Positions 177 to 59,985 of a stretch of 64,000 bases of DNA are shown piece by piece (position 1 is the first letter of the stretch; every line of letters begins with the position of its first letter). The DNA is taken from contig CM041292.1 in assembly GCA_023052935.1 (NCBI GenBank), positions 203,755,799 through 203,819,798 of the forward strand, written 5' to 3'. The DNA comes from Piezodorus guildinii (lineage: Eukaryota; Arthropoda; Insecta; Hemiptera; Pentatomidae). Both the position numbers and the translations under genes were made by a program. The notes under the pieces are model-generated. The model saw only the letters and a list, made by a program, of their open reading frames with translations. It did not search any database and was not told the DNA's origin.

Positions 177-1087
177 ACTCTCACTTACTATATATAGTAA
201 GGGGAAGTATTGCGATCGTGAAAATTTTCGAATTCCAGTTTTCAACGGAAATACACGTTTTAGGGTCCCCTGAGTCCAAATAACCAAGTCCCGCAAAAAG
301 GTCTGTGTGTGTGTGTGTGTCTGTCTGTGTGTGTGTGTGTGTGTGTGTGTGGTAACTCCCGGGCGGAAACGGTAAGTCCTATGAAACTGAAATTTCATAT
401 TTAAGACAACTATACGTCCGAGACGTGACAAAACTTTTTTCATCAAGATGAGCTTACCAGAAGAGGCACTTTATACCATGCATTTTGCACCTTTTTTCGA
501 TTTTCTCAAAAACGGTTCCGACGATTTTGATTAAACTCGCTATATCGATGTAAAATTTAATGGGCTTTAATATCATGTAGGTTTTATTTGGATAAAAATG
601 GTCTGACAGGGCTTCAATACCGATATTTTAAATTTTCTTCTTCTAAAGTACCTTTAATTTTGTAGATTCAATAATAATAACTAGATAATCTTGTTAACGC
701 TGATGAAAAACAGGTAAATATATAAATTGAATCAATTCGATACCCAACTAAAGGAGAAAACAGAAAAAATATTTTTTTAATGCAATTTTTCGTTTTTGAA
801 CATAAGAGCAGTAATATACATGTATGATATACCGTTGGAAAGCTAAAGATTTTAGAAAAAATATCATCTCATACACAAGCTTTTAGAAGTTAATAGAGAG
901 TGATGAGAAGAAGATAAAACTAACTGATTATTTTAGATAATAATATAATAGTTTTTTTAATGAAACACATGTTTCTATATAAATTAAATTTATTTTCACG
1001 TATTTTTAACTCTAACTCTATTTGAAAATTCTTTCATTGATTTTTCAAATTGATGTAAGTGAAAGTCGAGTGTTGCCCGCACCAGAT
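177..1087 (-). mobile_element. Hel-1 Helentron-like non-autonomous element, copy 1
   Basis: Near full length. The 3' palindrome TTACTATATATAGTAA lies at 185-200, the internal (GT)n tract at about 304-351, and the 5' end (TGCCCGCACCAGA on the plus strand) at about 1074-1086. The subterminal repeat ACTTTCACTTAC is present at both ends with single changes. No coding capacity is credible. The layout (subterminal inverted repeats, 3' hairpin, internal microsatellite, no TIR, T-rich borders) is that described for Helentron-derived HINE/DINE-1 elements. The family assignment is inferred from structure. Confidence 0.8.
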
Positions 1088-1594
1088 TTTTTTTTATAAT
1101 TATATAATAATTTATTTTTAAATCAATCCGTTATTGTCATTTCTTTCCCGCAAAATTTTCTGCTAAATGCTTTGAAATGTTTTAACCGCCTAAAATTAGC
1201 TAAATGTTAGTTTCTTTATTTCTGGCCGAGTGTTAATCAGCAATTTAACGTGTTTGTCAGCTTGTTTATTTTGACACAATATAGTCGCTATAAAATAGTG
1301 ATGTAACAAGTTATGCAACCGCAACTGCTTATAAAAGCGATTGTTTTAATCGTGTTTGTATAAATTTTCTTAAATTTATTTTATGTTAATGTATTTATTT
1401 GCTTTGAAACCCTTTTTATTTCGTATAAGTAAACATCAGGTCGTTGTTATATTTCAATAAAAATTAATTTCTTTTTTTTAAACACATTATTTTTATTTAA
1501 AGGTTTAAATTAAAGAACAGTAAAACTTACCTCAGCGATTTCTCGAGAATTTCTTTAATTTCTTTACTTGGAACAAAGATATTTTTAAGTACAA
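1088..1594. other. AT-rich spacer, nothing recognised
   Basis: Very AT-rich sequence between two Hel-1 copies whose 5' ends face each other. I see no open frame of interest, no tRNA-like box and no repeat shared with the rest of the window. Confidence 0.5.
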
Positions 1595-2443
1595 TCAACA
1601 CACGACTTCCACTTACCTAAGTTTTTTTAAAGTCGATTAAAGAATTTTCAAATATAGTTAGAGATAAAAATGAGTGAAACCATTACAGAGAATTAATTAA
1701 ATGGAATTTCTATAGAAACATGTGTTTCATTAAAAAATCTATTATATTATTATCTAAAATAATGAGTTAGTTTTATTATCGGCTTTTCATCACTGTTTAT
1801 TAACTTTTAAAAGCTTGTGTATTAGTTAATATTTTTTTTCTAAAATCTTTAGCTTTCCAACGGTATATTACATATGTATATTACTGTCTTTATGTTCAAA
1901 AACAAAAAATTGCATTAAAAAAATATTATTTCAGTATTTTCCTTTAGATGGGTATCCAATTCATTAAATTTATATATTTACCTGTTTTTCATCAGTGGTA
2001 ACAACATAATATAGTTATTTTTATAGAATCTACAAAATAAAAGGTACTTTAGAAGAAGAAAATTTAAAATATCAGCATTTAAGCCCTGTCACACCATTTT
2101 AATCAGAATGAAACCTACATGATGTTACAGCGTATTAAATTTTACATCGATATAGCGAGTTTAATCAAAATCGTCGGAACCGTTTTTGAGAAAATCATAA
2201 AAAGGTGCAATATGCATAAAAAAAATGGCTCTTCTCTTCAGCCGATTTTGATGAACATTTTTTTGTAACATCTCGGACGTGAGGTTGTCTTAAATATGAA
2301 ATTTCAGTTTCATAGGACTTTTTGTTTCCGCCCGGGAGTTACCACACAAACACACAGCCTTTTTTGCGGGACTTCGAAAACTGGAATTCCAAAATTTTCA
2401 CCATCACAATACTTTCGCTTACTGTATATAGTAAGTGAAAGTA
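1595..2443 (+). mobile_element. Hel-1 element, copy 2
   Basis: Plus orientation. The first bases of the 5' end (TCTGGTGCGGG) are missing; it starts at CAACACACGACTTCCACTTAC. The (GT)n tract is shrunk to a short CA-rich run near 2344, and the part reading CTTGGTTATTTGGACTCAG in other copies is deleted. The 3' palindrome ACTGTATATAGT followed by AAGTGAAAGT is at about 2421-2443. Inverted relative to copy 1. Confidence 0.78.
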
Positions 2444-2615
2444 AAAAAGCCCTACACTTACGAAATGTAGGCAAAACGTGATTTTTTTTTATTTAAACCC
2501 ATTTAGCCCTTAAACGATAGGTCCAAGCGACAAATGTTGTAAAACGAAAAATATTTTTCATTAAATTTTTAACGGTAATGCTATCTTAAAATTGTAGATT
2601 TAAAAAAGCGTTATA

Positions 2616-3513
2616 TTGGGTTGATGCAAAATTAATGCAGGTTTCCTCTATTGCAATATCTTAATTCCAATTGTGTAAACAAAGCTAATCCTAACATTGA
2701 TCATTATTATACCAAAACAAACCTTATCTAATACCCTCTCTTTCACCATGAATTTGTTTAGTAAAATCGTTTTGTTCAGTGTGTTCAAAGGTCTTGAATC
2801 GAAAATGTCAAAGTGCGATTTTCGTCAAATTTATTTTTACGAATTTCAATTAGGGCGCAGCGCTGCGCAAACGGCTCGTAATATTAATGAAGTGTGGGGT
2901 CAGGGGGCTATTAATGAGTGCACGGTGCAGCGTTGGTTCCAGAAGTTTCGCAGAGGAGATTTCGACCTCGAAGACAAGGAAGGTCGGGGCCGTCATCTTG
3001 CTCTGGACAACGACCAGCTGAGGTCAAAAGTGGAAGAAGACCCAACCAAAACCACACGAGAAATGGCGGCGGAACTCGGAACTCAAAAATTGCAACGTCT
3101 TTGCCCAGCATTGATGAATCGGAAGGGCCGATCCTGCTCCACGATAACGCCAGACCACACGTTGCACAACCAACGCTTCGACGACTGCACGAGTTGGGCT
3201 ACGAAGTTCTCCAACATCCGCCTTATTCACCTGACCTCTCTCCTACAGACTTCCACTTTTTCAGGCATCTGGACAACTTTTTGAGGGAGAAAAATTTTCA
3301 AAACCAGGACGACATTGAAAATTCTTTTCGTGATTTCATTGAGTCCAGGGATTCGGATTTTTTTTCTGGTGGAATAAGAAAGCTTGTTGAACGTTGGCAA
3401 AAGTGCATTGATTCAGATGGAAATTATTTTGATTAAATATATATGGTTAAAGTAAAGATATGGCGTATTTACAATACCTACTAAAAACCTGCATTAATTT
3501 TGCATCAACCCAA
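2616..3513 (+). mobile_element. MLE-1, internally deleted mariner-like transposon
   Basis: An 898-bp element bounded by perfect inverted repeats of about 29 bp starting TTGGGTTGATGCAAAATTAA and flanked on both sides by TA (2614-2615 and 3514-3515), the mariner target duplication. Autonomous mariners are about 1.3 kb, so roughly 0.4 kb is missing from the middle. The ends look intact enough to be moved in trans if a matching transposase exists elsewhere in the genome. Confidence 0.92.
2805..3436 (+). pseudogene. mariner transposase remnant (MLE-1), central catalytic part deleted
   Basis: Begins at the ATG of MSKCDFRQIYFYEF. The N-terminal paired helix-turn-helix part is readable (RSAAQTARNINEVWG, then VQRWFQKFRRGDFDLED) to about 3090 in one frame. 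After a deletion junction, the C-terminal part continues in another frame with LLHDNARPHVAQ and YSPDLSPTDFHFF, which carry the second and third acidic residues of the mariner D,D34D triad, and ends at TAA 3434-3436. The first catalytic Asp region is missing, so this copy cannot encode active transposase. Confidence 0.9.
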
Positions 3514-4395
3514 TACTCTTAGCCAAAGGGCATGTTCATTTTATACCTTTGTGTACCTACATTGTGACTAAACATCTTAATATCACTAATTGTAAATAGT
3601 TTTTTTTTATTATTGAAACTTGATATTAAAAGATGCTTTCGGAAATCGCTTTCGGTTGGTTTTAATTTCCTTATGAATCCGTTATTACAGCAAAAAAATA
3701 GTTATTTACTAACAGGCAAAATAGAACAAGTTATTTGGATCCATCCACATGGAAAAAAATGTAGAACGGCGTCTGTTTTTTTTCGGGTTCTTTTAGATTT
3801 TAATATATATATATATACATATTTTAAAATATCATCTGTAATAAAAGTTTTTATTTTGGGATTGGTAGTCTGTATTTAGAGAAGAAATTTTCGTGTTTAA
3901 TTCTTATCATTATTCCTTCTGGTTAGAAATGTACTAAAAATTTACTGGCGTTTAACTTTTCACATCAGAGGTTTAGCCCGAACTAGATCCGAATCGGAAA
4001 GTAAACAGGACTTTTAACAGCCTATTGGTTAATATAACAGTGCCAAAAGAGAAATCTGGACGTGTGAAAACTTCCTACTCTTGTTTAGTTTTCTCAGTTT
4101 CTAGAAGCACCTGTTAAACTTTTTTATCTAAACAGAATTAGAAATTATATTCGATAATATCCACTGATATTCTTTTTTCGAAAAGGCATTGACTTAACAT
4201 TCCATTACGGCATAGAAATTTCGTTCGAAAATACTTAAATCACTATCTGGACTCTTTTAAAATTTTGCTAGGTGTACCTCAAAGCAGCGTATTTGGTCCA
4301 ACACCTCAAACGAAAGAGAAAAGAACTGAATCAACGATATAAAATCCAATCTTTTCAATCAAAATTACTTCTGCAATTGTAAATGCCCCCTTTTT
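3514..4395. other. AT-rich spacer, nothing recognised
   Basis: Contains a short (TA)n run near 3803-3816 and T-rich stretches. No coding region, RNA gene or repeat of this window is recognised. Confidence 0.5.
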
Positions 4396-5291
4396 ACTCT
4401 CACTTACTATATTTAGTAAGGGGAAATATTGCGATCGTGAAAATTTTCGAATTCCAGTTTTCAACGGAAATACACGTTTTAGGGCCCCGAGTCCAAATAA
4501 CCAAGTCCCGCAAAAAGGTCTGTGTGTGTGTGTGTTTGTGTGGTAACTCCCGGGCGGAAACGGAAGTCCTATGAAACTGAAATTCCATAATTAAGAGAAC
4601 TATAAGCCCGAGATGTTACAAAATCTTTTCATCAAATAGCTTATCAGAAGAGCACTTTATACCAGCATTTTGCACCTTTTTTCGATTTTCTCGAAAACGG
4701 TTTTGACGATTTTATTTAAACTTCGCTATATCGGTGTAAAATTTAATTGGCTTTAACATCATTTAGGTTTTCATTTGGATTAAAATGGTTTGACAGGCTT
4801 AAATGCCGATATTTTAAATTTTCTTTTCCCCTAAAGTACCTTTAATTTTGTAGATTCATAAAAATAACTATATTATCTTGTTACCACTGATGTAAAACAG
4901 GTAAATATATAAATTGAATGAATTCGATACCCAACTAAAGGAGAAAACTGAAAAAATATATTTTGTATGCAATTTTTTGTTTTTGAACATAAGAGCAGTA
5001 ATATACATGTATGATAATACCGTTGGAAAGCTAAAGATTTTAGAATAAATATTATCTCATACACAAGCTCTTAAAAGTTAGTAAGAGTGATGAAAAGCCG
5101 ACAAAACTAACTGATTATTTAAGATAATAATGTAATAGATTTTTTAATGAAACATATGTTTATATAGAAATTCCATTTAATTAATTCTCTGTAATGGTTT
5201 CACTCATTTTTTTCTCTAACTATATTTGAAAATTCTTTAATTGATTCTAAAAACGGAGGTAAGTGAAAGTCGTGTGTTACCCGCACCAGAT
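4396..5291 (-). mobile_element. Hel-1 element, copy 3
   Basis: Minus orientation, near full length. The 3' palindrome is slightly decayed (TTACTATATTTAGTAA, 4404-4419), a (GT)n tract lies at about 4519-4542, and the 5' end GCACCAGA is at 5283-5290. It abuts a Jockey-like fragment without spacer. Confidence 0.8.
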
Positions 5292-6118: not shown

Positions 6119-7003
6119 ATCTGGTGCGGGCAACACACGACTTTCACTTACCGATACCGACTTATACTTACCAATTTGCAAGTACAGTAAGAGCTAAAAA
6201 TTAGTAAAACCATTAAAAGAATAAATTAAATGGCATTTCTATAGAAACGTGTGTTTTATTAAAAAATCTATTATATTATTATCTAAAACAATCACTTACT
6301 TTTATCGGCTTTTTATCCCTCTCTATTAACTTTTAAAAGCTTGTGTATAAGATAATATTTTTTCTAAAATCTTTAGCTTTCCAACGGTATATCATACATG
6401 TATATTACTGTTCTTATGTTCAAAAACTAAAAATTGCATTAAAAAAATATTTTTTCAGTTTTTTCCTTTAGTTGCTTTTCAAATTAGCTCAACTTGCATA
6501 TTTAGCTGTTTTTTATGAGTGGTAACAAGATAATATAGTTATTTTTATAGAATCTACAAAATCAAAGGTACTTTAGAAAATATAATTTAAAATATCGGCA
6601 TTTAAGCCCTGTCAGACCATTTTAATCAGAACAAAACCTACATATTACAGCCCATTACATTTCACATCGATATAGCGAGTTTAATCAAAATCGTCGGAAC
6701 CGTTTTCGAGAAAATCGAAATAAGGTGCAAATGCATTGTGAAGGGCCACTTTACTCTTCTGGTAAGGTTATTTTGATGAAAAGGGTTTTGTAACGTCTCG
6801 GGAGTATATTTGTCTTAAATATGAATTTTCAGTTTCATAGGACTTACCGTTTCCGCCCGGGAGTTACCACACACACACACACACACACACTCTTGGTTAT
6901 TTGGACTCAGGGGGCCCTAAAATGTGTATTTCCGTTGAAAACTGGAATTCGAAAATTTTCACGATCGCAATACTTTCCCTTACTATGTATAGTAAGTGAA
7001 AGT
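6119..7003 (+). mobile_element. Hel-1 element, copy 4
   Basis: Plus orientation, both ends present: TCTGGTGCGGGCAACACACG at the 5' side, (CA)n at 6870-6890, and the palindrome region TTACTATGTATAGTAA followed by GTGAAAGT at the 3' side. The hairpin has one central mismatch. No coding capacity. Confidence 0.85.
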
Positions 7004-7075
7004 AAAAAAAAAGTTATAATATTAATTTTATTCGTTAGTGAAAACCATAAATGATAGTAAATTACCAGAATTTTT

Positions 7076-7205
7076 TTAATTTATTTAACGTCCCTTTATG
7101 CTGCTGTGGCTAAACGGACGATGCTACAGTGGGAGTCCTAAATTTTGTCTTTCCATGTTTACTTAAGATAGGACGGCTCTGACGTTTCCGATGAAGGACG
7201 GCTAA
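7076..7205 (-). mobile_element. SINE-1 fragment (3' part)
   Basis: The plus strand reads TTATTTAACGTC, then CGATGCTACAGTGGGAGTCC, the reverse complement of the SINE-1 3' body and tail. The tRNA-like head is absent. It runs straight into a Hel-1 fragment, suggesting an old recombination or truncation at 7205. Confidence 0.7.
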
Positions 7206-8542
7206 ATATGCAAGTTGGATGAATTTGATGACCAACCAAAGGAAAAATCAAACAATTTTTTTAAGCAAATTTTTTTTTTTTTTTTTTACTATTAAACATA
7301 TTAATATATTAATAACAGTTAATATGTTAATAATTAATATTAAGAACATTAATATAGACATATAATATACTGTTAGAAAGAGAGAGAGATTTTAGAAAAA
7401 AATATTATCTGATACACAAAGATGTCAAATGTATTATAATGTGACTAATAGGGAATAAACTTATAACTGATTAACAATTTAATGTATTGGGTTGTGTCAC
7501 ATGAAATGACCGTTTTCAAGGTAAAGGTTTTTTATTGAAAATACGATATGAAAACAAGATAATTTTATTCGAAGTATTTACCTTCTTTTTCTATACATTT
7601 TTCCCAACGTGACACCAACTTTTTTATCCCCGAACTGAAAAACTCTGAGCTTTGAAGTGAAACAAAATCTGAAAACGCACTTGATCATCATTTTCAAAAA
7701 TTTTTCCTTTGACGAAGTTGTCTAAATTCCTGAACAGGTGGTAATCTGTTGGAGACAAGTCGGGAGAATATGGTGGGTGCGGAAGAACTTCGTAGCCCAG
7801 TTCTTTCAATTTTTGCACGGTATGTTTTGAAACATGGGGTCTTGCTGCCGCTCAGTCAGATCATGAGGTACCCATGTATCGAGCTTTTTTACTTTCCCAA
7901 TACACTTTAAATGTCTGGAAACGGTAGATACACTTGCATTTAGTTGTGCTGAGAGTTCTTTAACTGTTTGGTAGGGGTTTCCTTCTACTGTATGTTTGAG
8001 GACATAGTTGTCTATTACGGACGGAAATCTTCCTCGTGGCAAATTTTCCAAGCTGAAAACTTAGCAAACCAACGGCAAAAGGTCCGTTCATTAACACTCC
8101 CTTCCCCAAACACCTTGCAAATATTTCTAGCGGCCTCAGCTGCTGAATGGCCGAGTTTAAACTCGTAAAAAAATATTAATTGAAAATCGCGTGTTTCCAT
8201 GTTCATATTTGGAGGTATACTAAAAAGTTATTGGTAATTGATTGGGAAGCTAATGTTTATAATACAAAGGTAGAGGATTAGTAACTGTTTACTTTAAATA
8301 TGTAAACATTTGGAAGAAAACAACAGAGACCTACAAAATCCTTTATGTATTTCAGAAACTATAAAAACGGACATTTCATGTGAAACAACCCAATAGTTAT
8401 ATTAGAATCTAAATCATATGTTTCTAACGAAAATTAATACACGTTTTATTAAAAATATTTTTCAAATTGAAAGATATTTAATAGTTTTTAAATAGATTTT
8501 AACAGTCGAGGTAAGTGAAAGTCGTGTGTTGCTCGCACCAGA
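7206..8542 (-). mobile_element. Hel-1 5' half, split by an MLE-2 mariner
   Basis: Hel-1 sequence at 7206-7486 resumes at 8394-8542 and ends with the 5' terminus GCTCGCACCAGA. The 907-bp mariner at 7487-8393 sits at a TA in the middle. The 3' hairpin half is missing. An A/T-rich expansion lies near 7261-7350. Confidence 0.72.
7487..8393 (-). mobile_element. MLE-2 deleted mariner-like element, copy a
   Basis: Flanked by TA on both sides. The ends are imperfect inverted repeats (TTGGGTTGTGTCACATGAAA against the complement of TTTCATGTGAAACAACCCAA). On the minus strand the transposase N-terminus (MNMETRDFQLIFFYEFKLGH, then VNERTFCRWFAKF) and the segment up to WVPHDLTERQ are readable. The frame is then joined to ARPHVSKHTVQK-like sequence and KLKELGYEVLPHPPYSPDL followed by SPTDYHLF. 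The span between WVPHDL and HDNARPH, including the first catalytic Asp, is deleted. A 13-nt deletion after the first ~60 codons adds a frameshift shared with copy d. Confidence 0.92.
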
Positions 8543-12051: not shown

Positions 12052-13024
12052 ACTTTCACTTACTATATATAGTAAGGGAAGTATTGCGATCGTGAAAATT
12101 TTAGAATTCTAGTTTTCGACGGAAATACACGTTTTAGGGTCCCCTGAGTCCAAATAACCAAGTCCCGCAAAAAGGTCTGTCTGGGGTTTAACTCCCGGGC
12201 GGAAACGGTAAGTCCTATGAAACTGAAATTTCATATTTAAGACAACTATACGCCCGAGACGTGACAAAACTTTTTTCATCAAAATGAGCCTACCAGAAGA
12301 GGCACTTTATACTATGCATTTTGCACCTTTTTTCGATTTTCTCGAAAACGGTTCCGACGATTTTGATTAAACTCGCTATATCGATGTAAAATTTAATGGG
12401 CTTTAATATCATGTAGGTTTTATTTATATAAAAATGGTCTGACAGGGCTTAAATGCCGATATTTTAAATTTTCTTCCCCTAAAGTACCTTTAATTTTGTA
12501 GATTCAATAATAATAACTAGATTATCTTGTTAACACTGATGAAAAACTGGTAAATATATAAATTGAATAAATTCGATACCCAACTAAAGGAGAAAACAGA
12601 AAAAATATTTCTTTAATGCAATTTTTCGTTTTTGAACATAAGAGCAGTAATATACATGTATGATATACCGTTGGAAAGCTAAAGATTTTAGAAAAAATAT
12701 CATCTCATACACAAGCTTTTAAAAGTTATTGGAGAGTGATGAAAAGAAGATAAAACTTACTGATTATTTAAGATAATAATATAATTGATTTTTTAATAAA
12801 ACACATGGTTCTATATAAATTCAATTTGATTAATTCCATTATAATTTCACGTATTTTTATCTCTAACTGTATTTGAAAATTCTTTCATTGATTTTAAAAA
12901 TGGAGGTAAGTGAGAGTTGTGTGTTGCCCGCACCGGATTTTTTTTATCTCTAACTGTATTTGAAAATTCTTTAATCGGTTTTTAAAACGGAGGTAAGTGA
13001 AATTCGAGTGTTGCCCGCACCGGA
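12052..13024 (-). mobile_element. Hel-1 element with duplicated 5' terminus, copy 6
   Basis: The 3' palindrome lies near 12056-12075. The (GT)n tract is almost lost (GTCTGTCTGGGG). The 5' terminus occurs twice in tandem: one ends at about 12938 and a second at 13024. The two 86-bp blocks share TATCTCTAACTGTATTTGAA through GCACCGGATTT but differ at several bases, so the duplication is not very recent. Confidence 0.82.
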
Positions 13025-13420: not shown

Positions 13421-13755
13421 ACTTTCACTTACTATATATAGTTAGGGAAAGTATTGCGTTCGTGAAAATTTTCGAATTCCAGTTTTCGACGGAAATAAAC
13501 GTTTTAGGGTCTCCTGAGACCAAATGACCAAGTCCCCGACAAGACAACTATACGCCCGAGATGTTACAGGAACTTTTTCATCAAAATCGGCTGACCGGAA
13601 AAGCCACTTTATACCTAGCATTTTGCACCTTTTTACGATTTTCTAAAAAACGACTCAAACGATTCTGATTAATCTCTCTATATGGGTGTAAAATTTAATT
13701 GGCTTTAATATCATTTAGGTTTCATTCTGATTAAAATAGTCTGACAGGGCTTAAA
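13421..13755 (-). mobile_element. Hel-1 3' part, copy 7
   Basis: Starts with ACTTTCACTTACTATATATA and runs to GACAGGGCTTAAATG. The (GT)n region is deleted (CCAAGTCCCCGACAAGACAA). It is broken by the LINE fragment at 13764-14155 and joined beyond it to an oppositely oriented Hel-1 piece. Confidence 0.75.
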
Positions 13756-13763
13756 TGTAACAT

Positions 13764-14155
13764 TTATTTATTTATTACCCTCCCCTGCCTTGAGGCAATA
13801 CGGGTATTGCTGCTGTGGGAAGTACTATAGATACAACCCACAACTGCTATGAAACTAATCACTCAGCATGCTAGTGGGTCTTCGGATGTTCGGTGGACTT
13901 CTTCATACTTCTCTCCTACCTCGAGTTGAAGTGGCTTGGACCAATCTGTTCCTTCCACCCGTATACAAAGGCTTTGTAGTACGGGTAGTTTTGTTTGGAT
14001 ATGAGATTAGGGATATCGCCCTCTGTGAGGACGTAGAGTCCTGTGTCCCTCAGGAGCTTCATTCTCAGTGCCTCATAAGTAGTACAGGCAAGGAGAATAT
14101 GCTCGGCGGTCTCCGGAACACCACAACTGGGACATAGGGGACTGACATTTACATT
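13764..14155 (-). mobile_element. LINE C-terminus with zinc knuckle, flanked by TSD
   Basis: The minus strand reads CPSCGVPETAEHILLACTTY then EALRMKLLRDTG, the Cys-His knuckle (CxxC...H...C) found after the RNase H or RT region in many insect LINEs. A (TAAA)n-like tail on minus lies at 13764-13777. An 8-bp direct repeat TGTAACAT flanks the piece (13756-13763 and 14156-14163), so I read it as a 5'-truncated insertion into a pre-existing Hel-1 foldback. Confidence 0.78.
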
Positions 14156-14242
14156 TGTAACATCTCAGGCATATAATAGTCTTAAATATGAAATTTCAGT
14201 TTCATAGGACTTTTAGTTTCCTCCCGGGAGTTCTGGGTCAAC
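14156..14242 (+). mobile_element. Hel-1 fragment, copy 8
   Basis: Short plus-oriented piece: GTCTTAAATATGAAATTTCA followed by GTTTCATAGGAC and CTCCCGGGAGTT. It is the internal part just before the microsatellite position and directly precedes copy 9. Confidence 0.7.
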
Positions 14243-14248
14243 AAAAAA

Positions 14249-15083
14249 TCTGGTGCGGGCAACACACGACTTTCACTTACCTCGATTTTTAAAATCAATG
14301 AAAGAATTTTCAAATACAGTAAGAGCTAAAAATACGTGAAACTATTAAGGAATTAATTAAATTGAATTTATTTAGAAACATGTGTTTTATTAAAAAATCT
14401 ATTATATTATTATATAAAATAATAAGTTAGTTTTATGTTCATTTCATCACTCTATATAAACTTTTAAAAGTTTGTGTATGAGATAATATTTTTTCTGAAA
14501 TCTTTAGCTTTCCAACGGTATATCATACATGTATATTACTGTTCTTATGTTCAAAAACGAAAAATTGCATTAAAAAAATATTTTTTCTATTTTCCGCTTT
14601 AGTGAGGTATCGAATTTATTCAATTTATATATTTTCCTGTATTTTATCAGCGTTAACAAGATAATATAGCTATTTTTATTGAATTTACAACATAAAAGGT
14701 ACTTTAGGGGCAGAAAATATGGGCGTTTAAGCCCTGTCAGACCACTTTAATCAGAATAAAACCTACATGATATTAAAGCCCATTAAATTTTACATCGATA
14801 TAGCGAGTTTAATCAAAATCGTCTGAACCGTTTTCGAGAAAATCGAAAAAAGGTGCAAAATGCATGGTATAAAGTGCCTCTTCTGGTAAGCTCATTTTGA
14901 TGAAAAAAGGTTTGTCACAGGAAAGGAGTTACCACACACACCACACACACACAGAGACCTTTTTGCGGGACTTGGTTATTTGGACTCAGGGGACCCTAAA
15001 CGTGTATTTCCGTTGAAAACTGGAATTCGAAAATTTTCACGATCGCAATACTTCCCCTTACTATATATAGTAAGTGAATGTAA
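14249..15083 (+). mobile_element. Hel-1 element, copy 9
   Basis: Full-length plus copy: TCTGGTGCGGGCAACACACG at the start, (CA)n at about 14933-14952, and the perfect palindrome CTTACTATATATAGTAAG near 15057-15074. The ACGCCCGAGAC segment before the microsatellite is partly deleted. Confidence 0.86.
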
Positions 15084-16654: not shown

Positions 16655-17486
16655 ACTTTCACTTGCTATATATAGTAAGGGAAAGTATTGCGATCCTGAA
16701 AATTTTCGAATTCCGTTTTTCAACGGAAATACACATTTTAGGTTCCCCTGAGTCCAGTCCGGGCGGAAACGGTAAGTCCTATGAAACCGAAATTTCATAT
16801 TTAAGACAAATATACGCCCGAGACGTGACAAAACCTTCAAATCAAAATGAGCTTACCAGAAGAGGCACTTTATACCATGCATTTTGCACCTTTTTTCGAT
16901 TTTATCGAAAACGGTTCCGACGATTTTGATTAAACTCGGTATATCGATGTAAAATTTAATGGGCTTTAATATCATTTAGGTTTCATTCTGATTAAAATGG
17001 TCTGGCAGGGCTTAAATGCCGATATTTTCTTCCTCTGAAGTACCTTTAATATTGTTGATTCTATAAAAATAACTATATTATCTTGTTACCACTGATGAAA
17101 AACAGGTAGGTATGTAAGCGAATTTAAAAAACAACTAAAGGAGAAAACTGAAAAAAAATAATTTAATGAATTTTTTTGTTTTTGAACATAAAGGCAGTAA
17201 TATACATGTTTGATATACCGTTGGAAAGCTAAAGTATTTAAAAAAATATTATCTTATACACAAGCTTTTAAAAGTTAATAGAGGGTGATGTAAAGAAGAT
17301 AAAACTAACTGATTATTTTAGATAATAATACAATAGATTTTTTAATAAAACACATGGTTCTATATAAATTCGATTTAATTAATTCTTTAATAGTTTCACG
17401 TATTTTTATCTTTAACTGTATTTGAAAATTCTTTCATTGATTTTAAAAACGGAGGTAAGTGATGTCGTGTGTTGCCCGCACCAGAT
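16655..17486 (-). mobile_element. Hel-1 element, copy 10
   Basis: Palindrome variant CTTGCTATATATAGTAAG at 16662-16679. The microsatellite and its left flank are deleted (GAGTCCAGTCCGGGCGG). The 5' end GCCCGCACCAGA is at 17475-17486 with a shortened subterminal repeat (GTAAGTGATGTCG). Confidence 0.8.
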
Positions 17487-24000: not shown

Positions 24001-24879
24001 ACTTTCACTTACTATATATAGTAAGGGGAAGTATTGCGATCGTGAAAATTTTCGAATTCCAGTTTTCAAAGGAAATACACGTTTTAGGGTCCCCTGAGTC
24101 CAAATAACCAAGTCCCGCAAAAAGGTCTGTGTGTGTGTGTTAACTCCCGGGCAGAAACGGTAAGTCCTATGAAACTGAAATTTCATATTTAAGACAACTA
24201 TACGCCCGAGACGTGACAAAACTTTTTTCATCAAAATGAGCTTATCAGAAGAGGCACTTTATACCATGCATTTTGCACCTTTTTTCGATTTTCTCGAAAA
24301 CGGTTTCGACGATTTTGATTAAACTCGCTATATCGATGTAAAATTTAATGGGCTTTAATATCATGTAGGTTTTATTTGGATAAAAATGGTCTGACAGGGC
24401 TTAAATGCCGATATTTTCTTCCCCTAAAGTACCTTTTATGTTGTAAATTCAATAAAAATAGCTATATTATCTTGTTAACGCTGATAAAATACAAGAAAAT
24501 ATATAAATTGAATAAATTCGATACCCCACTAAAGCAGAAAATAGAAAAAATATTTTTTTAATGCAATTTTTCGTTTTTGAACATAAGAGCAGTAATATAC
24601 ATGTATGATATACCGTTGGAAAGCTAAAGATTTTAGAAAAAATATCTCATACACAAGCTTTTAAAAGTTAATAGAGAGTGATGAAATGAACATAAAACTA
24701 ACTGATTATTTTAGATAATAATATAATAGATTTTTTAATAAAACACATGTTTCTATATAAATTAAATTTAATTAATTCTTTAATAGTTTCACCTATTTTA
24801 TCTCTAACTGTATTTGAAAATTCTTTCATTGATTTTAAAAATGTAGGTAAGCGAAAGTCGTGTGTTGCCCGCACCAGAT
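24001..24879 (-). mobile_element. Hel-1 element, copy 11
   Basis: Full-length minus copy with perfect palindrome CTTACTATATATAGTAAG at 24008-24025, a short (GT)n at 24126-24139, and 5' end TGCCCGCACCAGA at 24867-24879. It keeps a continuous non-coding frame through the microsatellite that also appears in other copies. I treat this as repeat identity, not a gene. Confidence 0.86.
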
Positions 24880-25795: not shown

Positions 25796-26400
25796 TGATT
25801 TTCTCGAAAACGGTTCCGACGATTTTGATTAAACTCGCTATATCGATGTAAAATTTAATTGGCTTTAATATAATGCAGGTTTCTTTCTGATTAAAATGGT
25901 CTGACAGGGCTTAAATGCCGATATTTTAAATTTTCTTCCTCTAAAGTACCTTTAATTTTGTTGATTCTATAAAAATAACCATATTATCTTGTTAACATTG
26001 ATGAAAAACAGCTAAATATGCAACTTGAGCAAATTCGAAAAGCAACTAAAGGAAAAAAGTGAAAACATATTTTTTTAATGAAATTTTTCGTTTTTGAACA
26101 TAAGAGCAGTAATATACATGTATGATATACCGTTGGACAGCTAAAGATTTTAGAAAAATATTATCTTATACACAAGCTTTCAAATTTAATAGAGAGTGAT
26201 GAAAAGAAGATAAAACTAACAGATTATTTTAGATAATAATGTAATAGATTTTTTTAATAAAACACATGTTTCTATATAAATTCAATTTAATTAATTCTTT
26301 AATAGTTTCACGTATTTTTTTATCCCTAACTGTATTTGAAAATTCTTTTATTGATTTTAAATATAGAGGTAAGTGAAAGTCGTGTGTTGCCCGCACCAGA
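25796..26400 (-). mobile_element. Hel-1 5' two-thirds, copy 12
   Basis: Lacks the hairpin and microsatellite third. It begins at TTTTCTCGAAAACGGTTCCG and proceeds to the 5' end CCCGCACCAGA at 26400. It directly abuts a LINE fragment. Confidence 0.78.
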
Positions 26401-34455: not shown

Positions 34456-35345
34456 ACTTTCACTTACTATATATAGTAAGGGGAAGTATTGCGATCTTGA
34501 AAATTTTCGAATTCCTGTTTTCAACGGAAATACACTTTTTAGGGTCCCCTGAGTTCAAATAACCAAGTCCAGACAAAAAGGTCTGTGTGTGTGTGTGTGT
34601 GGTAACTCCCGGGCGGAAACGGTAAGTCCTATGAAACTGAAATTTCATATTTAAGACAACTATACGCCCGAGACGTGACAAAACTTTTTTCATCAAAATG
34701 AGCCTACCAGAAGAGGCACTTTATACCATGCATTTTGCACCTTTTTTCAATTTTCTCGAAAACGGTTCCGACGATTTTGATTAAACTCGCTATATCGATG
34801 TAAAAATTAATGGGATTTAATATCATGTAGGTTTTATTTGGATAAAAATGGTCTGACAGGGCTTAAATGCCGATATTTTAAATTGTCTTCCCCTAAAGTA
34901 CCTTTAATTTTGTAGATTCAATAATAATAACTAGATTATCTTGTTAACGCTGATGAAAAACCGGTAAATATATAAATTGAATAAATTCGATACCCAACCA
35001 AAGGAGAAAACAGAAAAAAATATTTTTTTAATGCAATTTTTCGTTTTTGAACATAAGAGCAGTAATATACATGTATGACATACTGTTGGAAAGCTAAAGA
35101 TTTTAGAAAAAATATCATCTCATTCACAAGATTTTAAAAGTTAATAGAGAGTGATGAAATGAACATAAAACTAACTGATTATTTTAGATAATAATATAAT
35201 ATAATTTTTAATGAAACACATGTTTTTATAGAAATTTAATTTAATTAATTCCTTAATAGTTTGACGTATTTTTATCTTTAACTGTATTTGAAAATTCTTT
35301 TATTGATTTAAAAAAATGGAGGTAAGTGTGTTGCCCGCACCAGAT
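34456..35345 (-). mobile_element. Hel-1 element inserted in a LINE, copy 15
   Basis: Full-length minus copy with perfect palindrome and a (GT)n tract at about 34583-34602. The 5' subterminal repeat has lost AAAGTCG (GGTAAGTGTGTTGCC). It separates two parts of one RT gene, and the flanks are ...GTCTCATTTT and TTTTTTGACTTAGC, consistent with insertion in a T run. Confidence 0.88.
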
Positions 35346-40909: not shown

Positions 40910-41291
40910 TATATATGTGACCAAGGCATAAAAAAATTATTCCTGAAATAAATGTAGTAACAAATAGACGTATAAGATACCGTTGGAAAGCGCAAGATTG
41001 TAGAAAAGTTAATATGCAATCAAATAAGTCGGGAAATTTAATAAAAAGATGTTATAAGCGTATATACTTATTCAGAAATGTTATTTGTAATGTTGTGGAT
41101 TAGGGAGGTTATAGTGATTCATGGTGATTGTACAGGTTATATACTTCCATGCAGTAGCCAAGATTTTCGAAAATGAAAGTTATAAACTAATGATGTTAAT
41201 AATTATTTTTACTTCTAGATCATTTCACAAAACAATAGTAGTTTTAATGTAAACTAAACGGGACTCACATGTAAACTAAATTAACATAATA

Positions 41292-44202: not shown

Positions 44203-44799
44203 TTTTGCAATTTTTTGTTTTTGAACTTAAGAGTAGTAATATACATGTATAATATACCGTTGAAAAGCTAAAGATTTTAGAAAAAATATTATCTTATACA
44301 TACTATTGTAAAAGTTTGTGAAGTGATGAAAATCCGATAAAACAAACTGATTTTCGTAGATAATATTATAATAGATTGTTTAATAAAACACATGTTTCTA
44401 TTGAAACAATAATTTGTTTGTTTTGTTTATTTATTTAACGTCATTTTATGCTACTATGGCTAATCGGACGATGCTACAGTGGGAGTCCTAAATTTCGCCT
44501 ATCCAGGTTTTATTAGGATAGGGATCTTTAACGAGTACCTGATATCACACAGGTCCTGAACCACCTTTTAACGTCCCCTCCGAAGGACAGCATAACTAAG
44601 GATTTTTACTCCCATTAAAAAATCCTAGGAGCACCTATGGGTTTGAACCCGTGACCTTTGGCATAGGAGGCTGTTGTGCTAGCTACCCAGCTACAAGTGA
44701 TCCCAAACAATAATTTATTTTCGTTTATAAATTTGTTTAAAAATTCTTGAAATGATATAAATAATGAAGGTAAGTGAAAGTCGTGTGTTAAGCGCACTA
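44203..44799 (-). mobile_element. Hel-1 5' half (variant subfamily), split by SINE-1, copy 17
   Basis: Diverged Hel-1: GAACTTAAGAGTAGTAATAT, ACCGTTGAAAAGCTAAAGA, ending GTAAGTGAAAGTCGTGTGTT then AAGCGCACTAC. It has the TTATTTTCGTTTATAAATTTG segment shared with the copies at 57.9 and 59.5 kb, marking a subfamily. Confidence 0.75.
44416..44704 (-). mobile_element. SINE-1 inserted in Hel-1, with TSD
   Basis: Near full-length. The minus-strand head has TTGTAGCTGGGTAGCTAGC and the B box CGGGTTCAAACCC; the body and the GTTAAATAAATAAAC tail follow. Flanked by a 12-bp direct repeat AAACAATAATTT (44404-44415 and 44705-44716). Confidence 0.92.
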
Positions 44800-46517: not shown

Positions 46518-47101
46518 TCTGGTGCGGGCAACACATGACTTTCACTTACTTCCATTTTTAAAATCAATGAAAGAATTTTCAAATACAGTTAGAGATAAAA
46601 ATACGTGAAACTATTAAAGAATTAATTAAATTGAATTTATATAGAAACATGTGTTTTATTAAAAAATATATTATATTATTATCTAAAATAATCAGATAGT
46701 TTTATCGGCTTTTATCACTCTCTATTAACTTTTACAAGCTCTTGTGTATGAGATAGTATTTTTTTCTAAAATCTTTAGCTTTCCAACGGCATATCATACA
46801 TGTATATTACTGCTCTTATGTTCAAAAACAAAAGTACATGGTAAAAAGTGGCTCTTCTGGTGAGCTCATTTTGATGAAAAAAGTTTTGTCACGTCTATAG
46901 TCGTTGTCTTAAATATGAAATTTCAGTTTCATAGGACTTACCGTTTCCGCCCGGGAGTTACACACACACACACAGACCATTTTGCGGGACTTGGTTATTT
47001 GGACTCAGGGGACCCTAAAACGTGTATTTCCGTTGAAAACTGGAATTCGAAAATTTTCACGATCGCAATACTTCCCCTTACTATATATAGTAAGTGAAAG
47101 T
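46518..47101 (+). mobile_element. Hel-1 element with internal deletion, copy 16
   Basis: Both termini are intact (TCTGGTGCGGGCAACACATG; palindrome CTTACTATATATAGTAAG with AAGTGAAAGT) but only 584 bp long. About 300 bp is missing at TTCAAAAACAAAAG/TACATGG. (CA)n at 46961-46974. Confidence 0.87.
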
Positions 47102-51765: not shown

Positions 51766-51830
51766 TTTTGCTACATTAGTTAATGTATTTATGCTTATTT
51801 AAAAGAATACGAAAATGAATTAACAACGGA

Positions 51831-51849
51831 TTTTTTTTTTCCTTTGCAG
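51831..51849 (+). promoter_or_regulatory. splice acceptor of forkhead exon
   Basis: T10 followed by CCTTTGCAG gives a strong polypyrimidine tract and AG at 51848-51849. A plausible branch site is the TTAAC of GAATTAACAAC about 25-30 bases upstream. The downstream base starts codon AGA in phase 0. Confidence 0.88.
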
Positions 51850-52197: not shown

Positions 52198-52203
52198 GTA
52201 GCT
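52198..52203 (+). promoter_or_regulatory. splice donor of forkhead exon
   Basis: CAG/GTAGCT: consensus CAG then GT. Reading through it gives VASY and a stop at 52210-52212, so the coding sequence must leave the exon here. Position +5 is C rather than G, so the site is somewhat weak. Confidence 0.82.
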
Positions 52204-52284
52204 AGTTATTAATTACTAAAGTAATTACTTCATCTTCTAAGCTGCGTTTATGGATGATCCCAGTATAAATGTACTTAATAGGGG

Positions 52285-54525: not shown

Positions 54526-54655
54526 AGGGATCTTTAACGAGTACCTGACACCACCTTTTAACGTTCCCTCCGAAGAACGGCATAACTAGGGATTTTCTAC
54601 AATCTACGGACTCCCATTAAAAAATCCTAGGGCTACCTGCGGGTTTGAACAAACC
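54520..54655 (-). mobile_element. SINE-1 fragment
   Basis: The plus strand shows AGGGATCTTTAACGAGTACC, TTAACGTTCCCTCCGAAGAA, AAAAAATCCTAGGGC and CGGGTTTGAAC; the 3' tail and upstream head are cut off. Confidence 0.7.
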
Positions 54656-56043: not shown

Positions 56044-56300
56044 ACTTTCACCTACTATATATAGTAAGGGAAAGTATTGCGATCGTGAAAATTTTCGAAT
56101 TCCAGTTTTCAACGGAAATACTCATTTTAGGGTCCCCTGAGTCCAAATAACCAAGTCCCGCAAAAAGGTCTGTGTGTGGTAACTCCCGGGCGGAAACGGT
56201 AAGTCCTATGAAACTGAAATTTCATAGTTAAGACAACTATACGCCCGAGACGTTACAAAACCTTTTTCATCAAAATGAGCTTACAAGAAGAGGCGCTGTG
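56044..56300 (-). mobile_element. Hel-1 3' quarter, copy 18
   Basis: The palindrome CTACTATATATAGTAAG and short GTGTGTG tract are present. The element breaks off at CTTACAAGAAGAGGCGCTGTG, where a mariner end is fused. Confidence 0.8.
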
Positions 56301-56319
56301 TTCATGTGAAACAACCCAA
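56301..56319 (-). mobile_element. solo MLE-2 terminus fused to Hel-1
   Basis: TTCATGTGAAACAACCCAA is the last 19 bases of the MLE-2 right end, followed by TA. No other mariner sequence is nearby, so this is an end left by deletion or gap repair. Confidence 0.75.
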
Positions 56320-56599
56320 TAATTATGAATCCTAAATTTCTAAATCACTCGATACTTTTAAGGATTATTGGCTAGTATTAAGGTATTGAGATATTATTGA
56401 TGATCCATATAATGCGGAGGTAAGAGAAGTTAAGTTCTCTAAGATTTACAATTAATTCGATAGGTAATGTGGCGCTGTATACTGTTCCCCCTGTCCAAAA
56501 CGTGGAGCTAATTTTCTTATAAACTATTTTTTTATAATCTTGACCAAAAAGTGAAGGGATGAAATTAATTTAATTAACAAATTATGCACTTTGTGTTTT

Positions 56600-56730
56600 T
56601 ATTCCTTTAATGTCACTTTATGCAACTAAGGCTAATCTGACGAGGCTACAGTGGTCCTAATTTTTGCCTCTCTAAGTTTTATTAAGATAGGGATCTTCGC
56701 ACATGCTCGGGACCACGTTTTTTGCGTCCT
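56600..56730 (-). mobile_element. SINE-1 fragment
   Basis: CTTTAATGTCACTTTATGCA, GGCTACAGTGG, TATTAAGATAGGGATCTTCG: the reverse complement of the SINE-1 3' body, decayed. It joins Hel-1 sequence at about 56731 as at 7.2 kb. Confidence 0.62.
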
Positions 56731-56969
56731 AATATCATGTAGGTTTCATTCTGATTGAAATAGTCTGACAGGGCTTAAATGCCGATATTTTAAATTTTCT
56801 TCCTCTAAAGTACCTTTAATTTTGTAGTTTTTATGAAATTAGCCATATCATCTTGTTGGCATTTCTATAAAACAGGTAAACATTTAAGGTGAACGAATTC
56901 GATATCCAACATCCTAAAGGAGAAAATTGCAAAAATATTTTTTTATACAATTTCTGTGTTTTTGAATTT

Positions 56970-57415
56970 TTTTTTATTTATATTTTATTGAATTTTACAA
57001 CTGTATATTACATAAATACAATAAGTAATTATAATAAAGGGCGTAAAAGGCTTGTGAAGAAACTACCCAGCGGTAGTACTTCGATGTTTATTTAAGTAAG
57101 TAGATCCCGAGGCCATCTTCTTTTCAATCGCCTCGGAGAGGAATAAATCAGGAATATGTGAGGTTAATAGGTTGCGGACAAGAGGGTTTATGTGGGCTGG
57201 GAGTTTGGAATTAAAAGTGCTATATCTGGAACGAGAAAGGTCTGCTACAAATGGATATTAAGGTCGTTATGGATGATTTTATTTGTGACTAAGTAAGGAG
57301 CATTCAGGATTTTGGATTGTAACGATTGGATGCGGGAGGAATTAGATAGAGACCCAAAGCTCGATTCCATTTGTCCAAATAGATCTGATGACAGTAATAT
57401 AAATGAGCTTTGGTA
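56970..57415 (-). mobile_element. Jockey-like LINE 3' end nested in Hel-1
   Basis: T-run at the left (poly-A on minus), 3' UTR TTTTACAACTGTATATTAC, then the CCCGAGGCCATCTTCTTTTC end motif and decayed upstream coding sequence. The repeat TTGAATTT lies at 56962-56969 and 57416-57423. Confidence 0.82.
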
Positions 57416-57641
57416 TTGAATTTAAAAACAGTAATATAAATGTATGATATACCGTTGGAAAGCTAAAGATTTTAGAAAAAATATCATCTCATACACAAGC
57501 TTGTAAAATTTAATGGATAGAAATGAAAAGCCTATAAACTAACTGATTATTTTAGATAATAATATAATAGATTATTTAATAAACACCTGTTTCTATTAAA
57601 ATCCAATCTAAATAATTCTTTAACAATTTATTTTCGTTTCT

Positions 57642-57907
57642 TGTTTGTTTGTTTATTTATATAACGTCACTTTCTGCTACAGCGGGAGTCCTAAATTTTG
57701 CCTATCCAGGTTTTATTAGGATAGGGATCTTTAACGAGTACCTGACATCGCACAGGCTCGGGGCCACCTTTTAACGTCCCCTCCGAAAGACAGCATAACT
57801 AAGGATTTTTTACTCCCATTAAAAAATCCTAGGACCACCTGCGGGTTTGAACCCGTGACCTTTGGCATAGGAGGCTGTTATGCTAGCCGCCCAGCTACAA
57901 GTGATCC
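57642..57907 (-). mobile_element. SINE-1 nested in Hel-1, with TSD
   Basis: Full-length minus copy. Landmarks CGAGTACCTGACATCGCACA, CGTCCCCTCCGAAAGACAGC and GCGGGTTTGAACCCGTGACC (B box on minus). A 12-bp direct repeat ATTTTCGTTTCT at 57630-57641 and 57908-57919. Confidence 0.92.
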
Positions 57908-57993
57908 ATTTTCGTTTCTAAATTTGCTTAAAAATTATTAAATTGATATATAATAACGGAGGTAAGTGAAAGTCGTGTGTTGCCCGCACCAGA

Positions 57994-58492: not shown

Positions 58493-58535
58493 TCTGGTGC
58501 GCGCAACAACCTACTTTCGTCATTTATATATAGCA
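58493..58535 (+). mobile_element. Hel-1-like 5' terminus only
   Basis: TCTGGTGCGCGCAACAACCT then ACTTTCGTCA corresponds to the Hel-1 5' end with changes. The expected internal sequence is replaced by a 21-bp minisatellite. Confidence 0.55.
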
Positions 58536-58640
58536 TTTCCAAGTCAAATTCAACCTTTTCCAAGTCAAATTCAACCTTTTCCAAGTCAAATTCAACCTTT
58601 TCCAAGTCAAATTCAACCTTTTTCATTTCAAATTCAACCT
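58536..58640. repeat. 21-bp minisatellite (five units)
   Basis: Unit TTTCCAAGTCAAATTCAACCT; four units nearly identical and a fifth diverged. Different in sequence from the 21-bp array at 40 kb, although the period is the same. Confidence 0.93.
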
Positions 58641-58805
58641 CTTTCGATTTCAATAAAATAATAAAAATCAAAATAACATAATTTTATGTTTTTATGGTTA
58701 TTTTAATTACACATTATATTTTTAGCCCTTGGGGCTTGTTAAATGTTCCCAGGTGCTTTTTTACATATAATTAGTCACGATTATAATAATAAGTATAACC
58801 GATAC

Positions 58806-59446
58806 TTTAATTTATAGACATTTTCGATACAAGGTCTGGTAGTCGGATTAGCGGGGGTCCGTTTTATTTTAGTTTTATAATCGCGGGCTAAAATATGATC
58901 AATAGAGGTTTATTTTAACTTTTTCGTATTTATTGGATAGTAGGCTCAGTAGATGCGTTCACAAAAGTTCGTTACCGATTATACTATTAATTTTAATCGC
59001 GCTCGCTCAAGTAAAGGTTTATTTAACTTTTTCGTATTTATTGGATACTAGGCTCAGTAGCTCCGTTTCCAAAGGTTCGTTACCGATTACACTATTAATT
59101 TTAATCGCGCTCGCTCAAATATGGGTTTATTATGACTTTTTCGTATTTATTAGATACAAGGCTCAGTAGCTGTGTTCCCAAAGGTTCGTTACCGATTACA
59201 CTATTAATTTTATTCGCGCTCGCTCAAAACTGGGTTTATTATAACTTTTTCGTATTTATTAGATACAAGGCTCAGTAGCTGCGATCCCAAAGGTTCGTTA
59301 CCGATTACACTATTAATTTGAATCGCGCTCGCTCAAATATGGGTTTATTATAACTTTTTCGTATTTATTGGATACAAGGCTCAGTAGCTTCGTTTCTAAA
59401 GTCGCGTTACCGATTATACTGTTAATTTTTATCGCGCTCGTATATG

Positions 59447-59447
<1 letters not shown>
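58806..59447. repeat. 109-bp satellite-like tandem array
   Basis: GGCTCAGTAG-type landmarks at 58943, 59051, 59160, 59269 and 59378: period 108-109 bp, five good units plus a divergent first unit from 58806. Each has GTTCGTTACCGATTA, ATCGCGCTCGCTCAA and AACTTTTTCGTATTTATT. Unit-to-unit differences are few in the middle, more at the ends, as in arrays maintained by unequal exchange. Confidence 0.93.

Positions 59448-59448
<1 letters not shown>

Positions 59449-59496
<48 letters not shown>
59449..59496. repeat. (AT)n microsatellite
   Basis: A nearly pure AT run of about 48 bases (a few initial interruptions) lying between the 109-bp array and a Hel-1 fragment. Confidence 0.95.
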
Positions 59497-59497
<1 letters not shown>

Positions 59498-59502
<5 letters not shown>

Positions 59503-59985
59503 CATTATTAAACAAATACAGAAACGAAAATAAATTTTTATAGAATTATTTACATTGGATTTTAATAGTAACATGTATTTTATTAAATAATCTATTAAAT
59601 TATTATCTACGACAATCAGTTTGTTTTATCGGCTTTTTATCACTCTCCGTTAACTTTTACAATAGTATGTATAAGATAATTATTTTTTCTAAAATATTAA
59701 GCATTCCAACGGTATATTATACAAGTATATTACAGTTCTTAAGTTCAGAAAATAAAAATTTAATTACAAAAAATATTTTTTCAGTTTTCTCCTTTAGTTG
59801 GATATCGAATTCGTTCAAGTTATATGTTTACCTGTGTTTTAGCAATGCTAAGCAGATGATGTGGTCAGTTTCATAAAATCTACAAAATTAAAGATACTTT
59901 AGAGAAAGAAATTTTAAAATATCGGCATTTAAGCCCTGTCAGACTATTTCGATCAGAATGAAACCTACATGATATTAAAGCCCGT
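59498..59985 (+). mobile_element. Hel-1 internal part (variant subfamily), copy 21
   Basis: Plus orientation: CAGAAACGAAAATAAATTTT, CAACGGTATATTATACAAG, GGCATTTAAGCCCTGTCAGA, ending CATGATATTAAAGCCCG. Both termini are missing. Together with 58493-58535 it may be one element expanded by the two tandem arrays. Confidence 0.72.

What the first reader, a model, noticed from the sequence alone, without database searches (positions are those of the whole stretch)
177..59985. An abundant Helentron/HINE-type repeat family (Hel-1) dominates the window
About 20 full or partial copies share a TCTGGTGCGGGC 5' end, a 12-bp subterminal inverted repeat ACTTTCACTTAC, an internal variable (GT)n tract, and an 18-bp palindrome CTTACTATATATAGTAAG just inside the 3' end. 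They have no TIR and no TSD that I can see, and T-rich borders. Seen: the structure and copy number. Known: HINE/DINE-1 elements have subterminal inverted repeats, a 3' stem-loop and a core microsatellite, and insert at TT. Inference: Hel-1 is such a family, apparently present at very high copy in this genome.
Basis: partly seen in the sequence, partly recalled or inferred. Interest (0 to 1): 0.8.

Follow-up and report, generated by a model that had tools for sequence, protein, structure and literature searches.

The report
Abundant non-coding rolling-circle-type transposon family

Summary
The repeat is real. A 10-copy majority consensus (891 bp) matches 13.1 kb (20.5%) of the window; chaining gives 21 copies or pieces, 11 with both ends. 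The motifs named are far above chance. It is not local: it makes up 9.2% (bootstrap 5.8-13.1%) of 27 ten-kb stretches of the same genome and occurs in 18 of them. The host is stink-bug-like (97% Forkhead match to Halyomorpha halys). One insertion has two diverged paralogous empty sites without duplication of non-T host sequence. Border T-runs are too long for random T|T sites, but the empty sites disagree on whether they are host or element, so an oligo-T duplication is not excluded. The 3' stem-loop is weak and without covariation. No Rep/helicase partner was found; the whole-genome search did not complete. Verdict: new family of a known kind, HINE-like (0.8); interest low to moderate.

The parts
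177..1086 (+). full copy (strand = HINE orientation, T-run|ACTTTCACTTAC...CACCAGA|T-run); longest (GT)n of the ten aligned copies
1596..2442 (-). copy with 5' end, lacks the last 11 bp of the 3' end
4396..5290 (+). full copy; weak, diverged paralogous empty site at 54149-54243 (-)
6120..7003 (-). full copy
7190..8542 (+). interrupted, diverged 3' part (consensus 492 onward, three pieces) with 3' end at 8542
12052..12937 (+). full copy
12941..13024 (+). 3'-terminal 84 bp of another copy, joined to the preceding copy through a T-run
13421..13757 (+). 3'-truncated copy with internal deletion
14154..14232 (-). internal fragment
14249..15081 (-). full copy
16655..17485 (+). full copy without the (GT)n tract
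24001..24878 (+). full copy; two paralogous empty sites (L006:8626-8740, L020:1674-1786)
25797..26400 (+). 5'-truncated copy with intact 3' end
28515..29563 (-). copy lacking the first 30 bp (5' subTIR and palindrome); carries an insert at about 28625-28808 related to the 56967-57415 insert
30238..31126 (+). full copy
34456..35344 (+). full copy; 3' subTIR partly deleted
40964..41015 (+). short internal fragment
44206..44797 (+). 3' part, colinear with the copy at 56044-57993 through its SINE-like insertion
46518..47101 (-). internally deleted copy with both ends
56044..57993 (+). copy with both ends, interrupted by an insert at about 56298-56729 (with a SINE-like piece), a LINE-like piece (about 56967-57415) and a SINE-like insert flanked by a 12-bp repeat (57630-57919)
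58493..59983 (-). related longer member: Hel-1 internal part at 59532-59983, 109-bp and 21-bp tandem arrays, 3' end GTTGCGCGCACCAGA

Best explanation
Hel-1 is a non-autonomous, non-coding family of Helentron-associated interspersed elements (HINE, DINE-1-like) in a stink-bug-like genome. In HINE orientation it reads: T-run, 12-bp subTIR ACTTTCACTTAC directly at the 5' border, 8-bp TATATATA spacer, imperfect complementary repeat (mostly GTAAGGGGAAGT or GTAAGGGAAAGT), (GT)n from about position 127, AT-rich body, 3' subTIR GTAAGTGAAAGT 20 nt before the end, CGTGTGTTGCCCGCACCAGA, T-run. Likely mechanism (inferred): the Rep/helicase of an autonomous Helentron recognises the end structures, nicks at the T-run, peels off and copies one strand and joins it into T-rich sites, with no duplication of other host sequence. 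Shown here: anatomy, copy number, T-rich borders, two paralogous empty sites for one insertion. Inferred: Rep/helicase dependence, single-strand intermediate, nick position, polarity.
For: Order of features matches published HINE/DINE-1: 5' subTIR 0-4 nt from the end, complementary repeat beside it, microsatellite on that side, 3' subTIR followed by a short palindrome, T-rich target, no TSD (PMC4067079; PMC7492417; PMC2374699). The 5' end with the consensus arm folds far better than shuffles (z -7.4, 0 of 200 shuffles as good). No Pfam hit at E up to 0.1 in six frames of one copy. Border T-runs exceed random T|T sites: 9 of 11 copies total 10 or more Ts against 1.6% of random T|T sites. Copy 24001-24878 has two paralogous empty sites with no duplication of flanking non-T sequence. 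A public 74-aa conceptual protein (P0001) runs through an element 5' end, an A-run and then SGARN, which the complement of a 3' end, TCTGGTGCGCGCAAC, would encode: apparently a head-to-tail junction (the codon reading is mine, its DNA was not seen).
Against: No Rep/helicase partner seen: none in six frames of one copy, none in 35345-46518, no Rep motif above shuffles in 274 kb. The 3' end folds no better than shuffles (z 0.15); its 5-bp stem has a G-T pair, is matched by 22% of shuffled tails and shows no covariation beyond shuffles. The terminal columns are well conserved (97.6% over the last 21) but so are some internal ones (bins range 90-99%). Oligo-T TSD is not excluded: 9 of 11 copies share 4 or more Ts on both borders; copy 46518 also shares a non-abutting TTTAATA in both flanks. 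Empty-site support is thin: at 45 bp or more on each side, 1 of 16 real junctions against 9 of 1000 random ones.
Confidence: 0.8

Rival explanations
1. A MITE-like DDE transposon derivative with a short oligo-T target site duplication: cut-and-paste, the Ts on both sides being host duplication.
For: Border T-runs have modes of 5 and 6; 9 of 11 copies share 4 or more Ts on both borders and run lengths correlate weakly, r = 0.42. Three of the four empty paralogs looked at closely have fewer Ts than the filled site.
Against: The inverted repeat is terminal on one side only; on the other it lies 20 nt inside a non-repeated end. T number varies 1-10. Of the two paralogs of copy 24001, L006 has 11 Ts, as many as the filled site in all, and L020 none at the junction; neither shows a single T5.
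Confidence: 0.1
2. A Helitron2/proto-Helentron-type or other rolling-circle derivative rather than a Helentron proper.
For: Without a partner protein these groups cannot be told apart here; PMC4067079 says Helitron2 has asymmetrical terminal inverted repeats and palindromes at both ends (passage).
Against: The combination of subTIR, adjacent repeat, microsatellite, 3' subTIR and T-rich target is the one reported for HINE/DINE-1.
Confidence: 0.15
3. A non-autonomous retroelement (SINE-like) with a poly-A/T tail.
Against: No tRNA or Rfam match in the window, homopolymer at both ends, no non-T TSD abutting the borders of 11 copies, while a SINE-like insert in the same window is flanked by a perfect 12-bp repeat.
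Confidence: 0.03

Closest known systems
HINE families of Metaseiulus occidentalis and Culex (PMC4067079; passages, and sections 6 and 7 read)
   Different: 3' subTIR lies 20 nt from the end (38-60 reported); the 3' stem here is at the lower size limit and folds no better than chance; no partner found
DINE-1 / INE-1 of Drosophila (PMC2374699; passages read)
   Same: 5' subTIR 0-2 nt from the end, adjacent partial inverted repeat, microsatellite-containing block, TT preference
   Different: subTIR sequence differs; DINE-1 has a 7-11 nt 3' stem, here 5 bp with a G-T pair; most copies here have no central tandem repeats
Cg_HINE of Crassostrea gigas (PMC7492417; passages read)
   Same: left side: subTIR, complementary repeat 1-12 bp away, microsatellite; right side: subTIR plus palindrome; central tandem arrays, as in the member at 58493-59983 here
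   Different: sequences were not compared; tandem arrays are the exception here
Canonical Helitrons, e.g. Hel-2 of insects (PMC4344730; passages read)
   Same: inverted repeat structures near the ends, microsatellite after the 5' subterminal repeat in Hel-2
   Different: no 3' CTRR end and no A|T target; T-rich target instead

Membership tests
HINE / DINE-1-like (Helentron-associated) | 12-15 bp subTIRs, at or near the 5' border and internal at the 3' border | tested here: met
   ACTTTCACTTAC at the 5' border, GTAAGTGAAAGT 20 nt from the 3' border
HINE / DINE-1-like (Helentron-associated) | complementary repeat or palindrome at the 5' subTIR | tested here: met
   hairpin z -7.4 with the consensus arm; 22 of 27 5' ends align at 94% mean column identity, the 5 most divergent having been left out; the arm is an imperfect complement in all 22
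HINE / DINE-1-like (Helentron-associated) | short stem-loop after the 3' subTIR | tested here: inconclusive
   z 0.15; 5-bp GTGTG/CGCAC with one G-T pair, 22% of shuffled tails reach it; 90% of cells pair, no covariation beyond shuffles
HINE / DINE-1-like (Helentron-associated) | microsatellite on the 5' side | tested here: met
   (GT)n near position 127 in 8 of 10 aligned copies
HINE / DINE-1-like (Helentron-associated) | T-rich target | tested here: met
   T-runs at both borders; whether all Ts are host is open
HINE / DINE-1-like (Helentron-associated) | no target site duplication | tested here: inconclusive
   no non-T duplication abutting the borders of 11 copies or in empty-site alignments; oligo-T duplication not separable
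HINE / DINE-1-like (Helentron-associated) | autonomous Helentron (Rep/helicase/endonuclease) with the same termini | not tested
   The genome search did not complete (17 requests); partial scans negative
Canonical Helitron | 5' TC, 3' CTRR, insertion between A and T | tested here: not met
HINE orientation: T-run|ACTTTC ... CACCAGA|T-run.
TIR/MITE transposon | inverted repeats at both extreme ends with fixed-length TSD | tested here: not met
   one repeat is 20 nt internal; border T number varies. A T-only TSD of variable length is not excluded
SINE | RNA-derived head and long TSD | tested here: not met
   no Rfam or tRNA hit; no non-T TSD abutting the borders

The most novel reading that the evidence does not exclude
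Border T-runs are part of the moving DNA, so that successive element units are joined head to tail through one shared T-run (P0001 reading; three 3'-end/T-run/3'-fragment chimeras: window 12937/12941, L005 about 5142, L002 about 9028). Hel-1 would then keep traces of rolling-circle multimers with a T-run as the joint between units, in a family of the order of 100,000 ends in one genome. (Odds lowered from 0.2 on recheck: empty paralog L006 holds as many Ts as the filled site.)
Probability: 0.15. Interest if true: 0.5.

Novelty: new member of a known kind. Interest (0 to 1): 0.3.

Why it matters
It adds a stink-bug-like genome to those in which HINE-type elements are a large component (about 9% of a small sample), and supplies a consensus, borders and a reasoned orientation for finding the autonomous partner. 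Many copies with measurable T-runs, and some apparent head-to-tail junctions, make it a usable case for testing where Helentron-type nicking and joining occur.

Tried and rejected
Whole-genome search for the termini or a Rep/helicase partner: not completed. Exact 20- to 32-base pieces in IMG/VR viral contigs and GTDB genomes: 0 hits. Text search for a 13-base piece: 0 papers. Seven literature searches: I saw listings only (20 of 156 papers); no listed title or abstract start describes this family. The library holds only open-licence PMC papers, PMC3845634 on Rhodnius and Bombyx elements is not held, and no Repbase or Dfam was available, so the family may already be catalogued.

Considered and dropped: an empty site at 15295 for copy 14249-15081 (only one flank matches); a long autonomous parent at 56044-57993 (a copy with nested insertions); the trailing 84-bp piece at 12941 as a recent local duplication (no closer to its neighbour than to the consensus, 0.893 against 0.905; likewise in L005, 0.914 against 0.954, and L002, 0.786 against 0.810). 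The spanning hits of L018 (E 0.004) and L021 (E 2e-13, only about 24 bp on one side) are not counted as proof. The 4396 site (69% over 101 columns, E 5e-6 in the window alone) did not pass E 1e-3 in the larger set and is supporting only. Random-junction control: spanning hits in 36 of 1000 at 20 bp and 9 of 1000 at 45 bp on each side, 5 of these 9 from one stretch (L001) whose hits lie within L001 itself; real junctions 2 of 16 and 1 of 16, so the count of empty sites is not significant in itself. One of the 17 copies with both ends (L005:44-1056) was left out there for lack of flank. Rows dropped: one truncated 3' end (window 1596) and one cut by a stretch end (L013) before the 3' stem count (38 of 40 kept); five divergent 5' ends before (22 of 27 kept).
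Full report
OBSERVATION. A majority consensus from ten copies with both ends is 891 bp; BLAST with it covers 13,111 bp, 20.5% of the window. Chaining gives 21 copies or pieces: 11 with both ends, 2 with only the 5' end, 4 with only the 3' end, 4 internal. The ten aligned copies lie at K2P 0.024-0.113 from the consensus and 0.041-0.165 from each other, so no very recent burst is seen in this window.

HOST AND ABUNDANCE. The one clear gene piece, a Forkhead domain at 51784-52212, is 97% identical over 84% of the query to fork head domain-containing protein L1 of Halyomorpha halys; the next named hits are Nesidiocoris tenuis (80%) and Cimex lectularius (85% over 77%) (best 120 of 1690 listed): a stink-bug-like hemipteran. 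The genome-wide search tool did not complete, but stretches could be taken: 27 of 10 kb at round coordinates, 21 on C1 and one each on C2-C7. Hel-1 makes up 24,859 of 270,000 bp (9.2%; bootstrap over stretches 5.8-13.1%), in 18 of 27 stretches. The 20 3' ends extrapolate to about 88,000 (44,000-145,000) in the 1.19 Gb of C1-C7; this rests on a small, C1-heavy sample. Exact motif counts in the sample are 11, 31 and 16, against 0, 1 and 0 for the reversed motifs. The window is about twice as rich as the sample mean, within the range of single stretches (up to 32%).

ANATOMY AND ORIENTATION. (GT)n at about 127 ... GGTAAGTGAAAGT CGTGTGTTGCCCGCACCAGA | T-run. Published HINE/DINE-1 elements have, on the 5' side, a subTIR 0-4 nt from the border, a complementary repeat beside it and a microsatellite, and on the 3' side a subTIR followed by a short palindrome, in T-rich target (PMC4067079; PMC7492417; PMC2374699). 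PMC2374699 itself says that 5' and 3' are arbitrary without an ORF, so this is homology of parts, not proven polarity. The 5' hairpin is strong with the consensus arm (z -7.4; -8.5 for an idealised perfect arm that none of 22 aligned ends carries). The 3' end folds no better than shuffles on either strand (z 0.15 and 0.77); its stem GTGTG/CGCAC is reached by 22% of shuffled tails; over 38 3' ends (32 distinct) 90% of cells pair but covariation does not exceed shuffles. I count that feature as inconclusive. The last 21 columns are 97.6% conserved, but 30-column bins elsewhere range from 90 to 99%, so this alone does not single out the end.

BORDERS AND TARGET. T-runs are 1-9 (13 5' ends) and 1-10 (16 3' ends). 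Random T|T sites have a mean total run of 3.6 and only 1.6% reach 10; 9 of 11 full copies in the window do. Either long T-runs are strongly preferred, although A/T runs of 10 or more occur at only 0.34 per kb away from the borders, or Ts arrive with or are duplicated by the insertion. Paralogous empty sites disagree. For copy 24001-24878 (T5 and T6), L006:8626-8740 holds 11 Ts at the site, as many as both borders together, as if a host T-run had been split, but it also lacks 9 nt of the right flank; L020:1674-1786 has no T-run at the junction (a T6 lies some 9 nt on). For copy 4396-5290 (T5 and T5) the paralog 54149-54243 reads TTCTTATT, and for L021:2199-3131 (T7 and T5) L021:1478-1587 has TTTATTTTT. 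None shows duplication of non-T host sequence. The control matters: random 890-bp deletions give spanning hits in 0.9% (45 bp or more on each side) to 3.6% (20 bp or more), real junctions in 1 of 16 and 2 of 16, so the case rests on the alignments of one insertion, not on the count.

TANDEM JUNCTIONS. The 135-aa conceptual ORF at 29186-29593 found one protein with E up to 0.001 (11 candidates), P0001, 97% identical over 27% of the query; P0001 as query found only itself. It reads through an element 5' end (...SQYFPLLYIVSES), six lysines (A-run) and SGARN, which is what TCT GGT GCG CGC AAC, the complement of a 3' end as at 58493, would give. I read it as 3' end, T-run, 5' end head to tail; the DNA was not seen. 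In three places among 40 3' ends a 3' end is followed through a T-run by another copy's 3'-terminal fragment starting at an internal T-run (window 12937/12941; L005 about 5142; L002 about 9028); these fragments are no closer to their neighbour than to the consensus, so they are not simply recent local duplications. Multimers, template switching at T-runs, or nested insertion followed by loss could each explain them.

CODING AND PARTNER. No Pfam family at E up to 0.1 in six frames of one full copy. In the longest gap between full copies, 35345-46518, six frames give only a weak reverse transcriptase. The Helentron Rep motif 2 given in PMC4067079 has one 3-mismatch hit, with stops, in 274 kb, against 0, 1 and 2 in shuffles. 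The rest of the window was scanned for domains only through ten chosen ORFs. Partner unknown.

VERDICT. A family of a known kind, HINE/DINE-1-like, about 0.8; ordinary in principle, notable for abundance. Membership is anatomical; the defining Rep/helicase partner remains untested, the 3' stem-loop and the absence of any TSD inconclusive.

Noticed in passing
57630-57919 (pieces also at 7071-7172, 9497-9659, 17694-17900, 26901-27604, 40124-40247, 40567-40688, 44412-44625, 54525-54600, 56591-56722, 60682-60905): SINE-like repeat (227-bp unit when in tandem at 26901-27423) inserted in a Hel-1 copy between perfect 12-bp direct repeats ATTTTCGTTTCT; it has tRNA B-box-like letters (my reading from recall), but ARAGORN and Rfam found nothing.
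   Followed up: partly
58493-59983: Related longer member with 109-bp x 4.9 and 21-bp x 5.2 tandem arrays and a (TA)n tract, recalling HINEs that carry satellite-like arrays; 3' end GTTGCGCGCACCAGA. One search for its matching 5' end in the window found only its own 3' end.
   Followed up: partly
12937-13024; L005 about 5142; L002 about 9028: 3' end joined through a T-run to another copy's 3' fragment that begins at an internal T-run; three cases among 40 3' ends.
   Followed up: partly
2679-3436 and 20604-20939 (-): Remnants of mariner-type transposase (Pfam HTH_48 in both; DDE_3 below cut-off in the first).
   Followed up: no
37986-38495; about 43446-43757 (-): Reverse transcriptase remnants, RVT_1 matches below the curated cut-off; the first reads like a Penelope-type RT (recalled, not tested).
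   Followed up: no
56967-57415, 41799-42279, 9806-10283, 28628-28813: Repeat shared by four places, two of them inside Hel-1 copies; LINE-like by my reading of the conceptual ORF at 41712-42149, without a Pfam match.
   Followed up: no
39926-40054 and 40758-40907: Two 21-bp tandem arrays with inverse-complementary units, with SINE-like pieces in opposite orientation at 40124-40247 and 40567-40688, suggesting an inverted arrangement.
   Followed up: no
51784-52212: Forkhead-domain exon, closest to a Halyomorpha halys fork head L1 protein.
   Followed up: yes
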